Below, in pieces: positions 1,031-12,473 of a stretch of DNA of 12,473 bases (its first letter is position 1; every line of letters starts with the position of its first letter). The notes beneath the pieces are model-generated. The model was not told the DNA's origin. It worked only from the letters and a program-made list of their open reading frames with translations, and ran no database searches. Source of the stretch: Candidatus Altarchaeota archaeon (lineage in GTDB: Archaea; SpSt-1190); NCBI GenBank assembly GCA_030590165.1, contig JAUUZA010000019.1, positions 1 to 12,473 on the forward strand, in the 5' to 3' direction. Position numbers and translations under genes: made by a program.

Positions 1031-1724
1031 AATAGAGGCGGCGATTTCCCCTTCCTTTGTTCTTGATTTTTACAACTTCAATTCTTCCAATTTCACTGAT
1101 GTCTGCAACATGTGGTCCCCCGCATGCTTGATATTCAATTCCCTAAATTTCAACAACACGAAGTTTTTTTACAAGTGGAGGAAGTTTGCTTGCAAGTTTA
1201 ATCATATTAGAATCTAAAAGAGCTTTTTCGCGTTCCACAAAAGTTATGATTACTTCAGCACCTTGTTCAATTAATTTATTTGCATCGCTTACCGCTTGTT
1301 CAATTAATGGGCGGTTCATTTCTTCAATAGTAAATCCCATATAACTTCCGTCAATTGAAACTTTTCCACTTCCAATTAAACAATTAGTTTTTTTGTGCAT
1401 CATTGCTTCGAGTAAGTGAGATGCAGTATGAAGTCGCATAAGTTTGTACCTTCTATTCCAATCAATTTCACCGTGTGTTTCCATTCCTTCTTTGATGCCG
1501 TCCATTTTATCAAGAGTATGAATTACTTTTCCGTTCGTTTCTGATACCTTTGTTACTATGAATTTTTTACCGTTTATGACAAGCATTCCAATATCATTTT
1601 GGACCCCGCCTTTTAATGGATAAAATGCACTTCGGTCTAAGACAACTCCGTTTTCAAGTACTTCAATAATTTTTGCCTCAAATCTTTTTTCATAATTGTT
1701 TTTCATGTGAAGGAGTTCGGTCAT
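1017..1724 (-). CDS. alaX: AlaX-type alanyl-tRNA editing protein with in-frame TAG at codon 194
   Basis: AlaX proteins are free-standing copies of the AlaRS editing domain that hydrolyse Ser or Gly mischarged on tRNA-Ala. The first 193 codons match the family: the MTELL start, YEKRFEAKI, the VVLDRSAFYPL strand, the Zn-binding HxxxH (H99 and H103 in RLHTASHLL) and a strand ending RVVEI. A TAG at 1143-1145 then interrupts. The same frame continues for 41 codons to a TAA at 1017-1019 and encodes the rest of the family: QACGGPHV with the C and H (codons 201 and 205) that complete the Zn site, then SEIGRIEV and a Lys/Arg-rich end. Without this part the enzyme lacks half of its zinc ligands. The usual GGGQPxD loop reads KGGVQND here. 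The start lies 7 bp after the upstream stop, so the gene is in an operon. Either TAG is read through or recoded, or this is a nonsense mutation or base error. Confidence 0.85.
1143..1145 (-). other. In-frame amber codon inside alaX
   Basis: On the minus strand the codons read GTT GAA ATT TAG GGA ATT GAA TAT. AlaX-type sequence continues on both sides of the TAG without a frame change. The position lies between the conserved VVEI strand and the CxxxH zinc motif, where homologs have an ordinary variable residue. TAG is one base from GAG, CAG and AAG, so a single substitution would also explain it. Confidence 0.85.
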
Positions 1725-1731
1725 TTAAGTT

Positions 1732-2823
1732 TTAATTTAGATTTTTTAAATAGCTTTTAGCTTCGCGAGCACATTCTTTTACATACGCTTGAATGTCTTC
1801 AATTTTTTTATAAAAATTAATTCCTTTTCTTGTATTTTTTTGTTTTTGAATTTCATCAAGTATTGATGGATGCTTTTCGGAAATAATTGGACGAATTCCT
1901 TTAGCATATTCTTTTCCAAGGTAAGCATAACTTATGGCATAACCTAGTGCATTGAAAAAATATTGGGGCATCGGCAGTTCCTGTTCTGTTAAAATTATTT
2001 CGAAAATATTTTTTCCATTTTCATGAAGTATTTGTTGTTGAAGATTATTTAATTGTAACAGTCGTTTTCTTGCTGATGAAATTAACCAATTAGCTTCGTT
2101 AAAATGATATATTACTTCATTTTTTGATGGAACAGTTTTTGCTTTTTCTTGAATTATTTTTGAATAATTATTTGGGTCATATATTATTTTGCCATTTTTG
2201 ACAAAATCCAAGTATATTCCGTCAACATTTTGGATGCCTTCTTCAAATCTTTTTTCATTCATTACATCAACATCCCATTCTTTAGGATATTGAATGTTTG
2301 AAGGGTTTTCGTTTTCTTTAATGAACCAAATATCAATATCTTGTCCCCATCCCTTTGTATAAAAAGTTCCATTCATTACAATAAAAATAGGGTTTTCTTC
2401 TGACAAAGTTTTGTAAATTAAAGACGGAATTTTTTCTTTGACTTTATTACTCAGAATTAGTGCGTATTCATCCGCTTTTTGTTCAAGAAATTTTTCAGGG
2501 TATTCAAGTTCAATTTCTTTTAGTTTTTGGTTATCTTGTAATTTAATAACTTGCAATAATTTTTCTTTAATGTTTTCTTGTTTGTAACAAGCTTCGTGAC
2601 CTACCTCATGAAGAACTTGAAAATATGTTGCATCCTCTCTCAAAAGAATTTCATGAATTAAATAAACTGCTTCGGACTTTCGTTTCTTAACGTTTCGTTT
2701 TTGTAATTCAGTTTCCCAATTTTCTTTGTTTATTATGGAAATTTCAGGTTCAAGTTGATGACCAAACAATTCAAAATATTGTTTTTTTGTTTCTTTAACT
2801 ACACTCGAAAGCCAAGCGGCCAT
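1732..2823 (-). CDS. HExxH metalloprotease - nucleotidyltransferase - HEPN-like fusion protein
   Basis: Three regions can be seen in this 363-aa protein. (1) Residues about 1-135 form a zincin-like metallopeptidase: LHEVGHEA (HExxH at 72-76) with EQKADEYA 38 residues later (E114, D118). This layout is like the ImmA/IrrE (DUF955) and M48-type gluzincins. (2) Residues about 140-225 resemble a minimal nucleotidyltransferase: a strand into NGTFYTKGWGQDIDIWFI (D162, D164), a further acidic strand DVDV (184-187) and the late strand YLDFVKNGKIIYDP. (3) Residues 238-363 are all-helical, like the HEPN partner of MNT toxin-antitoxin pairs. RPIISEKH (311-318) fits the RNase pattern Rx4-6H, although Pro follows the Arg. 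Family knowledge: MNT domains AMPylate HEPN RNases, and ImmA-type proteases cleave regulators. Joint action in one chain is inference. No signal peptide is seen, so it is likely cytoplasmic. It is the first gene of the minus-strand operon with alaX. Confidence 0.7.
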   Translation of the reverse strand: MAAWLSSVVKETKKQYFELFGHQLEPEISIINKENWETELQKRNVKKRKSEAVYLIHEILLREDATYFQVLHEVGHEACYKQENIKEKLLQVIKLQDNQKLKEIELEYPEKFLEQKADEYALILSNKVKEKIPSLIYKTLSEENPIFIVMNGTFYTKGWGQDIDIWFIKENENPSNIQYPKEWDVDVMNEKRFEEGIQNVDGIYLDFVKNGKIIYDPNNYSKIIQEKAKTVPSKNEVIYHFNEANWLISSARKRLLQLNNLQQQILHENGKNIFEIILTEQELPMPQYFFNALGYAISYAYLGKEYAKGIRPIISEKHPSILDEIQKQKNTRKGINFYKKIEDIQAYVKECAREAKSYLKNLN

Positions 2824-3186: not shown

Positions 3187-3822
3187 ATGATTCCTTCTCT
3201 TTCAGTTATTGTAAAAAAAGAAACCCTCAATTTTTTTGCAGATTTTTTCCCATATGCTTATTCACAATATTATGGTGATTGGAATATTCCTTTGTGGCAC
3301 TATAAATCTCCATATTTTTTGAGTCAATTAGAGGTACTTTATGATATTTGGGTCGACAAACCCGTTTTTAATTTCAGTTCTCCTTATCCTCTTTATGAAC
3401 GATTTTCTGGGAAAACAGACGTGTTTATGCCACGTGGTATTTTTTATCCAACATGTTCAATGCGTTCTTTGAGTTTTAGGGGGACTGGGAAAATAAAATA
3501 TACAAAAGTAAATAATTATACATCTGAACCTGTGACTTTTAGATGGTTTGTACCTGATTCTTGGAAAGATAAAATTGGATGGATGGAAAATGGAAAAATT
3601 GTTCATCGAAAAGAAATACATCCTAAATTAGATGGCGGTTGGTCAATTCATCCTGTATTCATTGATGAATCCATCATAGAATTAAATGAATCGTTTATAC
3701 CGACATTATTAGTTGCTCAAGGAAATAATAGGATTGAATGGCAACCTATTCCCCTGTTTCCAGAACGTGAAAAAGGAGATTTTTTCTTAGACCCAAAAGA
3801 TTTGAATCCAAGAGTAGAGTGA
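3187..3822 (+). CDS. 3' part of a frameshifted gene; unrecognised family shared with 4412-5251
   Basis: I do not recognise the family, but this 211-aa stretch is clearly homologous to the gene at 4412. Shared motifs occur in the same order: WNIPLWHY (residues 32-39) with WEFPLYHY; GIFYP (84-88) with GIFYW; NNYTSEPVTFRWFVP (109-123) with YNFTAEPVTFKLFTP; and GNNRIEWQPI (179-188) with GENRMEWFPV. The protein looks beta-rich and aromatic, with no signal peptide or membrane segment. It is longer than the paralog between the last two motifs and has a charged tail after EWQPI. The ATG at 3187 is probably internal: the frame is open back to 3121 and meets the upstream fragment at the A8 run. T-rich stretches after the TGA may end transcription. 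Confidence 0.6.
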   Translation: MIPSLSVIVKKETLNFFADFFPYAYSQYYGDWNIPLWHYKSPYFLSQLEVLYDIWVDKPVFNFSSPYPLYERFSGKTDVFMPRGIFYPTCSMRSLSFRGTGKIKYTKVNNYTSEPVTFRWFVPDSWKDKIGWMENGKIVHRKEIHPKLDGGWSIHPVFIDESIIELNESFIPTLLVAQGNNRIEWQPIPLFPEREKGDFFLDPKDLNPRVE

Positions 3823-4034: not shown

Positions 4035-4415
4035 GTGACTAAGAGTTTTATGCAGTACCAAAAACTTCTTGGTGGGTATAGCGGACAATTCGGAGCTGTG
4101 GTTTCGAATGAATATAAGCCGATGAATAGTTATCTTGTTGAGCTTTGGAGTGGTCCGAGTTTTATGTCATCCAAGTATAATAAAGTTATGTTTGATGGGC
4201 CTCTATTTGGAGATTTAAGACTTAAAATGAGAGTTGACGATAATTTGATGAAAACTGATTATTATGACCCAACTAAAGGCCAACTGTGGAGTAAAACTAA
4301 TTTGCAACCGGACCATCATTATGATCCAAGTATTATGGATTTTTCTAATTTAGATTTGTCTAAGATAGATCTTCTCAAGTTGCACTTGGAATCGCTTGAA
4401 CTGCTGGGGCTTTGA
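4035..4415 (+). CDS. Unrecognised 126-aa protein
   Basis: I do not recognise this protein. It starts with GTG, chosen because it lies just below a good TATA box and opens the longest frame; Met6 (4050) is an alternative. The composition is soluble and aromatic: many Tyr, Met and Gly in residues 5-95 (YSGQFGAVVSNEYKP, FDGPLFGDLRLKMRVDD), a QPDHHYDP stretch near 92-99, then a leucine-rich amphipathic end (DLSKIDLLKLHLESLELLG) that may form a helix for dimerisation or partner contact. The stop TGA (4413-4415) overlaps the TTG start of the next gene, so the two are probably translationally coupled and may work together. Confidence 0.6.
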   Translation: MTKSFMQYQKLLGGYSGQFGAVVSNEYKPMNSYLVELWSGPSFMSSKYNKVMFDGPLFGDLRLKMRVDDNLMKTDYYDPTKGQLWSKTNLQPDHHYDPSIMDFSNLDLSKIDLLKLHLESLELLGL

Positions 4416-5251
4416 AGGTGAAGAAACCCCTTTTTCTTTTTCCTTCCATTCTGAAAGAGAAATATAAGACACTTGAGAAACGTCATATGAAGTCATTGCC
4501 TTATCGCGGAAAAAAAATAAAGGTTTATAGTAAGTTAGAACACGGGAGTTCAGTTAATCACCTTGATTTTGATGTTGTTGATTTATTTTTTCCTTTGCTT
4601 GAAAACATCCATATCAAATCCGAAAAACCTACTGAGTTAAAAATATTTTTACCTGATTTTGCAAAAAAGTTGTTAAAATTTGAATCTGAAAAAAAAGAAG
4701 TAGATTTATCAAAAAAGATAGTTTTTCAAGGAGAATTTAAACTTACAATAACGGCTTCAAAATCTAAAGGGAAACTTCTTGGAGTTATTCCTGTTCTTTA
4801 TTTTTTAAAAACTGAAGAAGAAGCGTTTATGTGGGGGGTGCCTATCCCTATTTTTGTTGAGTCAACTAAATCTGGTTGGGAATTTCCGCTTTATCACTAT
4901 TTACATCCAAAAGCTGAAAATTATTTATTACCTCTTTTGGCGAAAGAATATTCAAAAGAACATTCAGAAATTTTTAATTTACTTTTTCCTTATTCTAAAA
5001 AATTTGTGAAACATGGGGATAAGTATTTTACAGATGGAATTTTTTATTGGATTCTTAATGCGCGAGAAGGGGAAAGAAAAACATATTTGTATAATTTTAC
5101 TGCTGAACCAGTTACTTTCAAACTTTTTACTCCGTCAGGGATTAAGGAAGTTGAAGTACTTGGGGATTCAAGGGAGTATTATGAACTTCCTGAAGACCTT
5201 CAATTTGTTGTTGCAATTGGGGAAAATAGGATGGAGTGGTTTCCCGTATGA
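4412..5251 (+). CDS. Unrecognised 279-aa protein, paralog of the split gene at 2930-3822
   Basis: The family is not recognised. This appears to be the intact paralog of the split gene upstream. Shared motifs are WEFPLYHY (156-163), GIFYWI (209-214), YNFTAEPVTFKLFTP (227-241) and the terminal GENRMEWFPV (270-279). Unlike the paralog, it has an extra basic N-terminal half (residues 1-55) and an inserted KYFTD before GIFY. It looks cytoplasmic and beta-rich, with no signal peptide and no obvious catalytic Asp/His/Cys cluster. The start is uncertain: TTG at 4412 overlaps the previous TGA, and GTG at 4418 is two codons later. Past the TGA the same frame stays open for 13 codons and repeats the end of the gene (LECFPV), a small local duplication. 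Confidence 0.65.
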   Translation: MKVKKPLFLFPSILKEKYKTLEKRHMKSLPYRGKKIKVYSKLEHGSSVNHLDFDVVDLFFPLLENIHIKSEKPTELKIFLPDFAKKLLKFESEKKEVDLSKKIVFQGEFKLTITASKSKGKLLGVIPVLYFLKTEEEAFMWGVPIPIFVESTKSGWEFPLYHYLHPKAENYLLPLLAKEYSKEHSEIFNLLFPYSKKFVKHGDKYFTDGIFYWILNAREGERKTYLYNFTAEPVTFKLFTPSGIKEVEVLGDSREYYELPEDLQFVVAIGENRMEWFPV

Positions 5252-9087: not shown

Positions 9088-9966
9088 GTGTGTTTAACTT
9101 TCTGTTCAGTGGGAAATGAGAAAGTGGAAAAATTATTAAATAATTTTTCGTGTGGGGGTTCTTTAGAGCAGATTTACATAGGTGATGTAACCGATTTTGA
9201 AATAAAACACATCTTTTTTCCAGAACCTTCAAAAAAAAATAAAAAAATTTTAAAAAATTTTCTTGACCATTGTTTAGATATGGTTAATGAATCTGTTTGG
9301 GGTAACCGAAATAAAGAGTGCTCAGGGATTCTTTCTTCCTTTGGTTCTTTTGATAAAAATAAAGCAATAAGGGGGGGAGTAGGGAGAATTTATTCAAAAA
9401 AGAATGAAATTTTTGAAACGAGTAAGGTGGAGACTCGCGTTCGTATTGATAAGAGGAGAAATCTTTATGACCTCCAAATGAAAGTGCTTGTTGAAGAAAA
9501 AATGAAAAAGAACCCTTTTGAAAGTTATTTTGTAATTGACAAGATTTTATCTGATTATAAACAGAATGAGAAATATATCAATCTTTTTTGGGGAGATATT
9601 ATTAGGCCAATTACTAAAGTAGAAGAACTTCACGATTTTGTAAATTGTTCTACATATGATGTTTTTGTAAATAATGGGGTTTTGAATAAAAGACAAGCGA
9701 CTGCTGAAGAAGTTTTTTGTCATGTACATGAAAATTATGGTAAAAAAATTTTATCTTCCTTTGGGAGTAATTTACTTTTTTATGAATTTTATTGTGTTTC
9801 AAAAGAAGTTCCTGAAGCTAAACAAGATAAAAATTACTATATCTTCATTGTTGATTTAGATTCTAACGAATTTGAGATGTTTGAAAATTGGCCAACCAAG
9901 AAAGTTAAGAATAAAAGGTCTATTTATGCTAATTCTTGGCTTTTGAGGAAGAGAAAAAATTTATAA
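9088..9966 (+). CDS. Unrecognised 285-292 aa protein X, source of the duplicated C-terminal tail
   Basis: I do not recognise this protein. It is soluble, aromatic and Lys-rich, with mixed helices and strands and no signal peptide. Visible pieces are FFPEPSKKNKKILKNFLDHC, a Gly/Arg-rich stretch RGGVGRIYSKK (about 96-106) and FWGDIIRPITKVEELHDFV. The C-terminal 38 residues (FEMFENWPTKKVKNKRSIYA, then NSWLLRKRKNL) recur as the tail of the secreted protein at 11954. GTG at 9088 opens the frame, but GTG at 9109 fits the TATA-like box better. The stop lies 20 bp before CC, so X, CC and Y probably form one operon. Residue 255 onward (base 9851) lies in the duplicated DNA. Confidence 0.6.
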   Translation: MCLTFCSVGNEKVEKLLNNFSCGGSLEQIYIGDVTDFEIKHIFFPEPSKKNKKILKNFLDHCLDMVNESVWGNRNKECSGILSSFGSFDKNKAIRGGVGRIYSKKNEIFETSKVETRVRIDKRRNLYDLQMKVLVEEKMKKNPFESYFVIDKILSDYKQNEKYINLFWGDIIRPITKVEELHDFVNCSTYDVFVNNGVLNKRQATAEEVFCHVHENYGKKILSSFGSNLLFYEFYCVSKEVPEAKQDKNYYIFIVDLDSNEFEMFENWPTKKVKNKRSIYANSWLLRKRKNL

Positions 9967-10078
9967 TTCAGTAGTAACTAATCCTAATGAGTGATAGAAT
10001 GACTGATAAAAAATATACCTCAGAAAATAAAGATAAACCAAGTATTCTCGATCCTTTTTTAATAAAAAAAACGATTAC
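9851..10078 (+). repeat. Direct repeat, copy 1 (X tail, spacer, start of CC)
   Basis: These 228 bases match 12246-12473 base for base at a constant offset of 2395, except at 9858 (A; T in copy 2) and 9958 (A; G in copy 2, Asn to Asp). The match may continue past the right edge, because copy 2 is cut by the window end. It stops abruptly on the left in both copies. Confidence 0.95.
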
Positions 10079-11927
10079 AGAAGGGGGAGATGTACTTCCT
10101 CCTCTTGGGAAGGTTGAACCTTCCCACCAAAAACCTTTAGATAATCGCCAACCATCAACATTGAGCCTTCATAAAACTAAATTAGTTTCAGCTCCGATTT
10201 TTTCTGAAATAAATTACACTCTACCAAATAATAAATTCATTATTAAGGTGAGAGGTAAATTGAATGGAAAGAAACTTAAGAAAAAAATAACAAGAAAAGA
10301 ATTACAAGTTTCAATTGATGAATCTTATTACACTCTTATTGAGCAAGTTAAATTTCTTTACAATACTTTTGGTGAACAAAAATTTAGAAGAAACCCTCCA
10401 AAAATTGAGCTTGATTTTAAAATTGATGTTTTGGGTGGGGATAAAAAAATTGAAGAATACATAAATGTTTTGAAAGAAGAAACATATCAAAATATAAGTG
10501 AAAAAGCTTTACAATCACCAAGTTCAGCAGTTAAAGTTTCAAAGAAAGAGGTGTTGGGATCTATTGGTCTTGGGGTCTTACAATATGCTTCTATTATTGC
10601 ACTTCCTATTGTTGGGGGACTTGTTGCATACGGAGCTAAAAAAGCAGTTGATGAACTGGGTGAATTTTTTGAACCAATAACCGAGGGTGTGACAAATATT
10701 TATACAGCCATTTCAAATTCAGTTGATATTGATGAAGCTCTTAATCAAATAAAAGCTTCAGCTCAAGTGGTAATTGATGGGGCTAGTGATATCCTTTCAG
10801 AAGTTGTCAATCTCGGTGAAATTAAAGATACCTTATCTGGTTATGCTGATGTTGTTGAAAGTGGAATAATAGATGCAAAGAGTTATGTTTCAGATATTGC
10901 TTCTGAAGCAAATACTTTGTTAGAGTCTTCAGGGGTTCTTGATGATATGAAAGCATTTTTGGAGACAGCTAAAGGAACAGTTGATACGGTTAAAACGAGT
11001 CTTAATGGTGCGAAAATACAAGTTCAAACAATAATAGCTGAGGCTAATACTGCTTATGCTGATACTCTTACGAGATATAATGATTCGAAAGCTAATGGAT
11101 TTACATATGATTGGAATGATGGTCAAGGTCCTCAACATTATGTTCCTGATTTTGATAATGACGGTGAAATTGATCTTACTTTTGATGAGTTGGGTAATCC
11201 TGTTTTTGATGCGGATTCAGGTAATCCTGCAATTTGGTTTTATCAAAATAGGGAGCTTGATCCCGATTTTGATAATATTGCATCTTCGTTTGAAATGGAA
11301 TGTCGTGATTATGCAATGCTTGAACAAAACTTAGCTTCTTTCAATTTAATAAAGAATAATGGAGAGTCTGTATTAACAACCCTTGACAATGCAACAACAA
11401 ATCTTGATGATGCTATTGGGAATATAAATCAAGTTTCAGGTTCAGGAACAGATGAAGGTCTAATTGGTGATACTCGAGATTCAATAACTTTGATTTCCAA
11501 TTCAGCAAGTAATGCTCAAACAACTTTGAACACGACTCAAGGAGCGGTAACATCAATGTATACTGAATTGGATAAATTAGGGGTGTCAGCTAATAATATT
11601 GAAACATATGCAAATGGCGTCTCTTCATCAGCTTCTCAAGTTAAACTTGAAGCAGACTCGGCATATGACAAAGTTAATTCACTTCGTTACAATGTCCAAA
11701 CGAGTGCAGATGGGATATCAAGTCAAACGGCTTTGAATACATCTCTTTTAAGTAAGGTTGCTAAACAAGCAAAGATACTTTATTATCTTCCAGCAATTCA
11801 TCTTGTTGCGGGCTTTTTGAGGAATAAACAAAAACTTAGAGCGAAGAGAGCAATTTCTAAGTTTATATTGAGTGGTAGTGAAATAAAGGCTTACAAAGGA
11901 ATTACAGGTAAAATGGAAGCTTCTTAA
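9987..11927 (+). CDS. Large membrane-anchored helical protein with calcium-type loop (CC)
   Basis: This 646-aa protein has no recognised family but a clear plan. Residues 1-65 are polar and disordered-looking. Residues 66-185 form a basic domain (KFIIKVRGKLNGKKLKKKI, then helices). TM1 lies at about 189-216 (SIGLGVLQYASIIALPIVGG). A Lys-poor, Asn/Ser/Thr/Ala-rich helical stretch of about 380 residues follows, interrupted by DFDNDGEID (388-396), a DxDxDGxxD calcium-type loop like those in dockerin or thrombospondin type-3 repeats. TM2 is at about 597-611 (ILYYLPAIHLVAGFL), then a strongly basic tail (RNKQKLRAKRA). By the positive-inside rule both ends would be cytoplasmic and the helical loop outside, making a surface stalk or a sensor. 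Methyl-accepting-receptor-like or tape-measure-like composition is an alternative reading. It lies in an apparent operon with X (20 bp) and Y (26 bp), and its start is duplicated at 12382. Confidence 0.75.
   Translation: MSDRMTDKKYTSENKDKPSILDPFLIKKTITEGGDVLPPLGKVEPSHQKPLDNRQPSTLSLHKTKLVSAPIFSEINYTLPNNKFIIKVRGKLNGKKLKKKITRKELQVSIDESYYTLIEQVKFLYNTFGEQKFRRNPPKIELDFKIDVLGGDKKIEEYINVLKEETYQNISEKALQSPSSAVKVSKKEVLGSIGLGVLQYASIIALPIVGGLVAYGAKKAVDELGEFFEPITEGVTNIYTAISNSVDIDEALNQIKASAQVVIDGASDILSEVVNLGEIKDTLSGYADVVESGIIDAKSYVSDIASEANTLLESSGVLDDMKAFLETAKGTVDTVKTSLNGAKIQVQTIIAEANTAYADTLTRYNDSKANGFTYDWNDGQGPQHYVPDFDNDGEIDLTFDELGNPVFDADSGNPAIWFYQNRELDPDFDNIASSFEMECRDYAMLEQNLASFNLIKNNGESVLTTLDNATTNLDDAIGNINQVSGSGTDEGLIGDTRDSITLISNSASNAQTTLNTTQGAVTSMYTELDKLGVSANNIETYANGVSSSASQVKLEADSAYDKVNSLRYNVQTSADGISSQTALNTSLLSKVAKQAKILYYLPAIHLVAGFLRNKQKLRAKRAISKFILSGSEIKAYKGITGKMEAS
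10106..10126. repeat. Perfect 10-bp palindrome inside the CC coding region
   Basis: TGGGAAGGTT (10106-10115) and AACCTTCCCA (10117-10126) are exact reverse complements around one G. It lies near codons 40-47 of CC, about 120 nt after the start codon, and could form a strong hairpin in the mRNA or act as a binding site. It lies beyond the sequenced part of copy 2, so whether the second copy has it is unknown. Confidence 0.7.
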
Positions 11928-11953: not shown

Positions 11954-12361
11954 GTGAGTAAGTTTATTGTGGGAAGACAGACAATATTTTTATTCGGTTT
12001 TCTTTTTATGATTTTTAGTTTAGTTTTTGCTTTCTCAGAATGTCATCTTAGTTCTTCTTATTGTTGTTCTGATTGTGTTATTGACGATTGTTCAGATGAT
12101 TATAATCCTTCCGCACTTTCTTGTGGTAATAATTATGGGTGTTCAAGGATTGCCAGTGAAAAAGGTTATCAAAAGAATTGTCTTGCTGGTGTAACCTGTA
12201 ATTATAATAATAAAGGTAAAATTGCAAGAAATTTATTGGGTGGCTTTGATTTTGATTCTAACGAATTTGAGATGTTTGAAAATTGGCCAACCAAGAAAGT
12301 TAAGAATAAAAGGTCTATTTATGCTAATTCTTGGCTTTTGAGGAAGAGAAAAGATTTATAA
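11954..12361 (+). CDS. Secreted Cys-rich protein Y fused to the C-terminal tail of X (chimera)
   Basis: This 135-aa protein starts at GTG. Residues 1-28 form a signal peptide or membrane anchor (a polar start, a hydrophobic core IFLFGFLFMIFSLVFAF, then SEC). Residues 30-82 contain nine cysteines (30, 37, 38, 41, 46, 57, 63, 76, 82), including CC-x-x-C and C-x-x-x-x-C spacings, as in disulphide-stabilised exported modules. From codon 98 the sequence is the tail of X (SNEFEMFENWPTKKVKNKRS and on), which is basic and looks cytoplasmic. The join is in frame at about 12246-12254. I infer that the natural Y gene is longer with a different C-terminus, and that this is the duplication joint. Whether the chimera is made or stable is unknown. 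It lies 26 bp after CC. Confidence 0.65.
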   Translation: MSKFIVGRQTIFLFGFLFMIFSLVFAFSECHLSSSYCCSDCVIDDCSDDYNPSALSCGNNYGCSRIASEKGYQKNCLAGVTCNYNNKGKIARNLLGGFDFDSNEFEMFENWPTKKVKNKRSIYANSWLLRKRKDL

Positions 12362-12473
12362 TTCAGTAGTAACTAATCCTAATGAGTGATAGAATGACTG
12401 ATAAAAAATATACCTCAGAAAATAAAGATAAACCAAGTATTCTCGATCCTTTTTTAATAAAAAAAACGATTAC
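12246..12473 (+). repeat. Direct repeat, copy 2, running off the window
   Basis: This is a copy of 9851-10078 with two mismatches (12253, 12353). It contains the X tail (to the TAA at 12359-12361), the identical 20-bp spacer, and the first 92 bases of CC. It is the right-hand boundary of the 2395-bp unit and continues to the last base of the window. Confidence 0.95.
12382..12473 (+). CDS. Second copy of the CC gene, N-terminal fragment
   Basis: An ATG at 12382 opens a frame identical to the first 30 codons of the CC gene (MSDRMTDKKYTSENKDKPSI and on) and is cut by the window edge. The preceding 20-bp spacer is the same as before the first copy. Its existence implies at least two tandem CC genes, unless the assembly is chimeric here. 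Confidence 0.8.
   Translation, partial: MSDRMTDKKYTSENKDKPSILDPFLIKKTI

What the first reader, a model, noticed from the sequence alone, without database searches (positions are those of the whole stretch)
1732..2823. One-chain metalloprotease, nucleotidyltransferase and HEPN-like fusion
The sequence shows HExxH with a downstream ExxAD (72-76, 114-118), a minimal-nucleotidyltransferase-like segment with GWGQDIDI and DVDV, and a helical C-terminus carrying R-x6-H (311-318). Known MNT/HEPN modules are toxin-antitoxin pairs in which the MNT AMPylates the HEPN RNase, and ImmA/IrrE-type proteases release regulators by cleavage. Having all three in one polypeptide could give a self-contained, protease-gated RNase switch. 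The combined architecture is unfamiliar to me.
Basis: partly seen in the sequence, partly recalled or inferred. Interest (0 to 1): 0.75.

Follow-up and report, generated by a model that had tools for sequence, protein, structure and literature searches.

The report
Archaeal protease–nucleotidyltransferase single-chain enzyme
The gene encodes one protein that joins a zinc-protease domain to a nucleotide-transferring enzyme, and its relatives in tiny DPANN archaea sit directly beside small toxin-like genes with matching partner genes, which suggests an unrecognised way in which these microbes process or control toxins.

Summary
HExxH (72-76), E114xxA-D118, G152-T..D162xD164 and D184 are all there. 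An alignment-based AlphaFold2 model (pLDDT 74) gives a zincin-like domain (1-130), a Pol-beta nucleotidyltransferase (NTase; about 130-229) and a HEPN-like helical domain (about 230-363). The last two together match HalB and kanamycin NTase (Z 9-10). No Pfam, NCBIfam, PADLOC or PDB sequence model covers the chain. It is a very remote member (about 20% identity, long branch) of a new family of at least 25 zincin-NTase proteins in DPANN archaea. About half of those genes lie within about 55 bp of small genes with one conserved leader and unrelated C-terminal domains. Each C-terminal type tends to be followed by its own downstream gene type (20 pairs, permutation p 1e-5), as in polymorphic toxin-immunity cassettes. 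Best mechanism: a leader-directed protease/nucleotidyltransferase that matures or restrains such proteins. The window gene itself has no such cassette: it precedes an AlaX gene, and no leader gene was found in its genome, so its own substrate is unknown.

The parts
1732..2823 (-). 363-aa single-chain zincin / Pol-beta nucleotidyltransferase / HEPN-like helical protein (coding 1735-2823, stop 1732-1734)
2434..2823 (-). residues 1-130: zincin-like metallopeptidase domain
   Evidence: AF2 model with 51-row alignment; rows limited to this part are zincins: ERAP2/APN gluzincins, PprI/IrrE 8sln, Z 6-7; profile score above all shuffles
2596..2610 (-). residues 72-76 HEVGH, zinc-binding helix motif (relatives: HEYFGHG, one residue longer)
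2470..2484 (-). residues 114-118 E-Q-K-A-D: candidate third zinc ligand (E114, or D118 by the alignment to YEgFA of relatives)
2137..2433 (-). residues 131-229: minimal Pol-beta-type nucleotidyltransferase domain
   Evidence: relatives match PF18765 Polbeta
2332..2370 (-). residues 152-164 GTFYTKGWGQDID: G-[S/T] and D-x-D catalytic motif
2272..2274 (-). residue D184: third catalytic Asp, aligned with the invariant Asp of W-L-D in relatives
1735..2136 (-). residues 230-363: HEPN-like helical bundle, longer than in most relatives
   Evidence: 1wol Z 7.5, 2hsb Z 7.0; with the NTase as HalB Z 10.2
1870..1893 (-).
1143..1724 (-). AlaX-type alanyl-tRNA editing protein, 7 bp downstream on the same strand (likely same transcript)
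   Evidence: NF040865 E 2.8e-57

Best explanation
What it is: a single-chain enzyme with an N-terminal zinc metallopeptidase domain joined to a two-domain nucleotidyltransferase (minimal Pol-beta NTase plus HEPN-like helical bundle, as in HalB and kanamycin NTase). It is a very diverged member of a DPANN-archaeal zincin-NTase family. How it most likely works (inferred from the relatives): the zincin and the NTase/helical unit act on the same protein partner. In relatives that partner is the small neighbouring protein that carries a conserved leader and a variable, toxin-like C-terminal domain. The zincin would cut between leader and C-terminal domain to release it, while the NTase adds nucleotides that hold the partner or the protease inactive, as MntA does to HepT. 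The downstream gene would be the matching immunity protein. In the window's own genome the partner is unknown. Shown: architecture, catalytic residues, family, the cassette association in relatives. Inferred: zinc binding, proteolysis, nucleotidylation, substrate, direction of regulation.
For: Architecture and residues. Family of 26 loci in DPANN genomes; of 27 full-length members examined all have HE..GH[G/S] and the third NTase acidic position (L065 may have Asn), 26 have the third-ligand motif (the exception has masked residues there). Separate occurrence of the halves: zincin alone (L067, L068) and NTase+helical alone (L069). Cassette in relatives: leader genes start -43 to +53 bp from the end of the zincin-NTase gene in 14 loci; leader conserved while C-terminal domains vary, three tandem copies in L042; C-terminal type predicts downstream gene type, 10/10 for type 0 and 3/3 for type 1, permutation p 1e-5 over 20 pairs, and one type pair recurs in the distant locus L067 (39% and 37% identity). 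Genome co-occurrence: the 7 of 234 genomes with a strong leader hit (E < 1e-12) are all among the 16 with a strong family hit (hypergeometric p 1.6e-9), on the same contig and within about 60 bp of the family gene in six of them.
Against: No leader gene or cassette in the window or elsewhere in its (about 88% complete) genome: best leader hit E 0.2. The window protein is a long-branch outlier (4.4 changes per site against a median of 0.33), lacks about 70 residues between zincin and NTase, and has HExxH where relatives have HExxxH, so its function may have drifted. About half of the family lacks a recognised cassette; L034, L035 and L037 have an Lrp-type HTH gene instead. The variable C-terminal domains match no toxin model, so 'toxin' rests on layout alone. 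The C-terminal homology between query and family is weak by sequence. No biochemical data exist.
Confidence: 0.42

Rival explanations
1. One reading: a self-contained toxin-antitoxin switch in which the protease gates a HEPN RNase that the NTase AMPylates in cis.
For: All three folds are in one chain; MntA is among the NTase matches (Z 9.1); R-x6-H exists as letters.
Against: R311/H318 lies in a low-confidence loop and is not conserved; the helical part with its NTase matches HalB and kanamycin NTase, which are not RNases; most relatives have only about 50-80 residues after the NTase, short for a complete HEPN RNase.
Confidence: 0.07
2. HalB-like guard enzyme: the NTase makes a nucleotide or short oligonucleotide signal that controls a defence effector, and the zincin destroys a regulator on infection.
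For: HalB is among the best matches to the NTase+helical unit, Z 10.2 over 165 residues; some relatives hit NCBIfam HalB (E 0.005) and MntA (E 2e-4) and PADLOC candidate PDC-S09 (E 9e-5). Hailong, MISS/Panoptes and Clover are described as systems with inhibitory nucleotide signals (PMC12265719).
Against: No HalA-like neighbour was recognised; the conserved neighbours of relatives are leader/variable-domain genes, not a constant effector; the Z values for HalB, kanamycin NTase and 3c18 are within about one unit.
Confidence: 0.2
3. Small-molecule nucleotidyltransferase of the aminoglycoside/lincosamide type with a fused, possibly structural, zincin domain.
For: Foldseek top hits include aminoglycoside NTase ANT and kanamycin NTase (E 2e-4 to 4e-4), Z 9.3 over about 204 residues.
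Against: Conserved linkage to small leader genes in relatives; zincin motif invariant in the family, which argues against a purely structural role there.
Confidence: 0.1
4. Housekeeping or tRNA-linked role with AlaX: the window protein has left the cassette system and now works with the alanyl-tRNA editing protein encoded 7 bp downstream.
For: AlaX follows on the same strand; no leader gene in the genome.
Against: No AlaX neighbour was recognised by eye in the flanks of relatives (not tested by profile); adjacency of two genes in one genome is weak evidence.
Confidence: 0.13

Closest known systems
HalB of the Hailong anti-phage system (PDB 9dbh, 9dbi, 9dbj)
   Same: Minimal Pol-beta NTase followed by a helical bundle; structural Z 10.2 over model residues 144-354
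   Different: No zincin domain; a two-gene system with the effector HalA; sequence identity 8-10%
Kanamycin/aminoglycoside nucleotidyltransferase ANT(4')
   Same: NTase plus C-terminal helical domain in one chain, Z 9.3 over about 204 residues
   Different: No zincin domain; antibiotic substrate; different gene context
MntA-HepT (HEPN-MNT) toxin-antitoxin system
   Same: NTase fold Z 9.1, HEPN fold Z about 6 (7ae6) to 7.5
   Different: Two separate genes; HepT has a conserved RNase motif that this protein and its relatives lack
DPANN MNT-HEPN fusion cls.004259 / NEQ050 (PMC6393860, Table 1)
   Same: NTase and HEPN-like domain fused in DPANN archaea
   Different: No zincin reported; described as typically in a housekeeping context; its sequence was not compared here
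Polymorphic toxin-immunity systems with metallopeptidases (PMC3482391)
   Same: Constant N-terminal part, variable C-terminal domain, matching downstream gene, peptidase linked (relatives only)
   Different: Very small proteins with a roughly 40-aa leader; the peptidase is a separate NTase fusion; such systems are described as rare in archaea; not found in the window's genome
ImmA/IrrE (PprI) metallopeptidases
   Same: HExxH with E-x-x-A-D/N-like helix; PprI 8sln among the fold matches to residues 7-126 (Z 6.2)
   Different: No PF06114 match; no HTH or repressor gene recognised beside the window gene

Membership tests
Zincin metallopeptidase | HExxH on a helix with a downstream acidic third ligand | tested here: inconclusive
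   HEVGH 72-76 on predicted helix 67-82: met; third ligand E114 or D118 cannot be decided, the alignment shifts between runs; zinc binding not testable
Zincin metallopeptidase | Zincin fold | tested here: inconclusive
   VIA rows confined to residues 1-160 are zincins (ERAP2, ERAP1, APN, PprI), but Z is 6-7, below the tool's caution level of 8; loop 90-108 under pLDDT 50
ImmA/IrrE (PF06114) | Match to the family profile | tested here: not met
   No Pfam match, none among 25 members
Pol-beta minimal nucleotidyltransferase | G-S/T, D-x-D and third Asp | tested here: met
   G152-T153, D162, D164, D184, aligned with the conserved motif of the family
Pol-beta minimal nucleotidyltransferase | NTase fold | tested here: met
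   Z 8-10 to MntA, HalB, kanamycin NTase, 3c18; relatives match PF18765 at up to E 4.3e-7
HEPN RNase | HEPN four-helix bundle | tested here: inconclusive
   1wol Z 7.5, 2hsb Z 7.0 over residues 232-359, within the range helical bundles can reach by chance; block-mean pLDDT 46-84 there
HEPN RNase | Conserved R-x4-6-H catalytic motif | tested here: not met
   R311/H318 in a loop, His absent from relatives; R-x4-6-H by letter in 3 of 27 relatives, not equivalent
MntA-HepT toxin-antitoxin | Two adjacent genes, HEPN toxin and MNT antitoxin | tested here: not met
   Single chain; neighbours are AlaX and an unmatched 194-aa ORF
Hailong (HalA-HalB) | HalB-like NTase next to a HalA effector | tested here: inconclusive
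   HalB-like fold; no HalA model was searched for; window protein has no PADLOC hit
Polymorphic toxin-immunity cassette (seen in relatives) | Leader gene with variable C-terminal domain and paired downstream gene beside the zincin-NTase gene | tested here: not met
   Met in about half of the relatives, but no leader gene in the window's genome and none seen in the window
DPANN zincin-NTase family defined here | Homologous zincin and NTase parts in the same order | tested here: met
   very remote, about 20% identity, long branch

The most novel reading that the evidence does not exclude
DPANN archaea carry a previously unrecognised conflict system: a fused zinc protease-nucleotidyltransferase that recognises a short common leader and processes or nucleotidylates a set of exchangeable toxin-like domains, each with its own immunity gene. 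The window gene would be a distant branch of it with another partner.
Probability: 0.3. Interest if true: 0.85.

Novelty: new variant of a known kind. Interest (0 to 1): 0.62.

Why it matters
Fusing a zincin to a HalB/kanamycin-NTase-like unit puts protein cleavage and nucleotidyl transfer in one chain, a combination missing from Pfam, NCBIfam, PADLOC and the PDB sequences searched. In relatives it is linked to leader genes with exchangeable C-terminal domains and matching downstream genes, in a group (DPANN) with few known weapons or defences and where classical polymorphic toxins are described as rare. If the leader is the protease's or NTase's recognition site, one enzyme family gives a direct handle for finding toxin-immunity pairs in many uncultured archaea.

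Tried and rejected
Direct profile searches of the window protein: no match that counts (Pfam best NTF-like E 0.15; NCBIfam, PADLOC, PHROGs and PDB nothing usable). Close-homolog scans of viral contigs, genome contigs, phages and plasmids with the window protein: none. No homolog in the other nine genomes of its phylum. Single-sequence AlphaFold2 failed (pLDDT 38). Several first-look hits were judged unrelated (L006, L008-L012, L026). Viral contigs with the two-member alignment: none. Some domain-fragment alignments misplaced the N-domain and were dropped. Viral fold library: only NTases and IrrE-like fragments among the named rows, no three-domain match seen. Pfam and NCBIfam on the leader proteins (ten per library): nothing. 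C-terminal homology to L069/L106 alone: not significant. Rfam: nothing in the window. Makarova et al. 2019 (mBio, archaeal polymorphic toxins) is not held, so prior description of the cassettes there cannot be excluded.

Full report
Observation. The ORF lies at 1732-2823 on the minus strand; the plus strand of the same stretch is closed. The genome is a 724-kb archaeal assembly, about 88% complete (archaeal because the named Woesearchaeota genome behind G248 is listed as the same domain).

Search for relatives. Sequence libraries give nothing for this chain, and no homolog is found in the nine other genomes of its phylum. A loose search of 394 archaeal genomes gave a weak hit (L005, G248) whose 357-aa protein has the same layout: HEYFGHG...YEGFA, then GSQKPESDIDL. 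That protein matches Pfam Polbeta above the gathering score and finds the window protein back at E 4e-5. Its alignment with a 44% identical protein (L021) pulled 26 loci out of 84,980 species genomes, with titles from Woesearchaeota, Pacearchaeota, other Nanoarchaeota and Diapherotrites. In a sample of 234 genomes of one class 16 have a strong match.

The window protein belongs to this family, remotely. A family profile built without it hits it at E 4e-6 among 1720 ORFs, in collinear pieces. Its N-terminal domain alone scores 16.4 bits, above all 4000 shuffles, including 2000 that keep HEVGH, and far above unrelated HExxH proteins. The columns invariant in all 25 sequences are W36, H72, E73, G75, H76, D162, D184 and G211. 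It is a very long branch, lacks about 70 residues between zincin and NTase, and has HExxH where relatives have HExxxH.

Structure. Without an alignment the prediction failed; with 51 rows it gave pLDDT 74, pTM 0.62. Rows aligned to residues 1-160 are zincins (for example ERAP2, ERAP1, aminopeptidase N, PprI; Z 6-7). Residues 128-359 match 3c18, HalB and kanamycin NTase (Z 9-10), 128-248 match MntA (Z 8-9), and 232-359 match archaeal HEPN proteins (Z about 7). The zincin and HEPN assignments rest on middling Z and are called likely, not proven; the NTase is firm. R311/H318 falls in a loop of low confidence and is not conserved, so an RNase reading is not supported.

Domains also occur apart: zincin alone in L067 and L068, NTase plus long helical domain in L069, a degenerate copy in L022.

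Gene context of relatives. In 14 loci a small ORF starts -43 to +53 bp from the end of the zincin-NTase gene; in others it lies just upstream. These ORFs share an N-terminal leader of about 40 residues, 'LE....Y....DLESLSASaLYsG', and differ behind it; L042 has three in tandem with three different ends. The type of the C-terminal domain predicts the type of the next gene: 10 of 10 for the 'SYEAAmlDL' type, 3 of 3 for the 'HPDG' type; permutation p 1e-5 over 20 pairs (the clusters are single-linkage at a loose BLAST cut-off, so the fine division of the rarer types is approximate). The pair 'DVHeTFK.DRY.N.Y.GHTT' plus its downstream gene recurs in the distant locus L067. In the 234-genome sample all 7 genomes with a strong leader hit are among the 16 with the zincin-NTase family (p 1.6e-9). 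This is the layout of polymorphic toxin-immunity systems (PMC3482391), described there as rare in archaea. No Pfam or NCBIfam model matches the C-terminal domains, so 'toxin' is inferred from layout.

Context of the window gene. It has no such neighbour. It is followed after 7 bp by an AlaX gene and then by an unmatched 194-aa ORF; the leader profile finds nothing in the genome (best E 0.2). The cassette role therefore cannot be claimed for this copy.

Mechanism. Shown: three-part architecture, catalytic residues, family membership, cassette linkage in relatives. Inferred: zinc binding and proteolysis, nucleotide transfer, the leader as recognition site, and restraint or release of the C-terminal domain. 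The most likely working is that one enzyme both cuts and nucleotidylates a partner protein; a HalB-like signal-making role is the main rival.

Novelty. The parts are known kinds; the fusion and its link to leader/variable-domain cassettes in DPANN archaea are not in the libraries searched. One relevant paper (Makarova et al. 2019, mBio) could not be read. MNT-HEPN fusions without a zincin are already reported in DPANN (PMC6393860). Hence 'new variant of a known kind'.

Noticed in passing
window 9851-10078 and 12246-12473 (+): A 228-bp direct repeat, 99% identical, the second copy ending exactly at the window end; it gives the ORFs 9088-9966 and 11954-12361 the same C-terminus although their N-terminal parts differ. 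Could be a duplicated 3' module or an assembly break at a repeat.
   Followed up: partly
window 9987-11927 (+): 646-aa ORF with a weak PHROG 'tail protein' match (E 6e-4).
   Followed up: no
window 3187-3822 and 4412-5251 (+): Two unmatched ORFs whose C-terminal parts look alike ('EPVTF..F.P' and 'NR.EW.P'), possibly paralogs.
   Followed up: no
L034 4532-5014, L035 4535-5005, L037 4534-4995, L068 1016-1492: In one branch of the family, and beside the stand-alone zincin L068, the neighbour is an Lrp-type HTH regulator (by eye) rather than a leader gene, reminiscent of protease-regulator pairs.
   Followed up: partly
L042 4343-6832 (+): Three tandem leader genes with the same leader and three different C-terminal ends, each followed by a different small gene.
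   Followed up: partly
L046 9943-10814 (+): A second, stop-interrupted copy of the zincin-NTase gene in the same contig as an intact one; in the G407 genome a leader gene lies beside the interrupted copy as well.
   Followed up: no
L025 1087-2688 (-): A 534-aa frame with HEYLGHG and EGFALW, a possible larger relative of the zincin domain without the NTase, in another archaeon.
   Followed up: no
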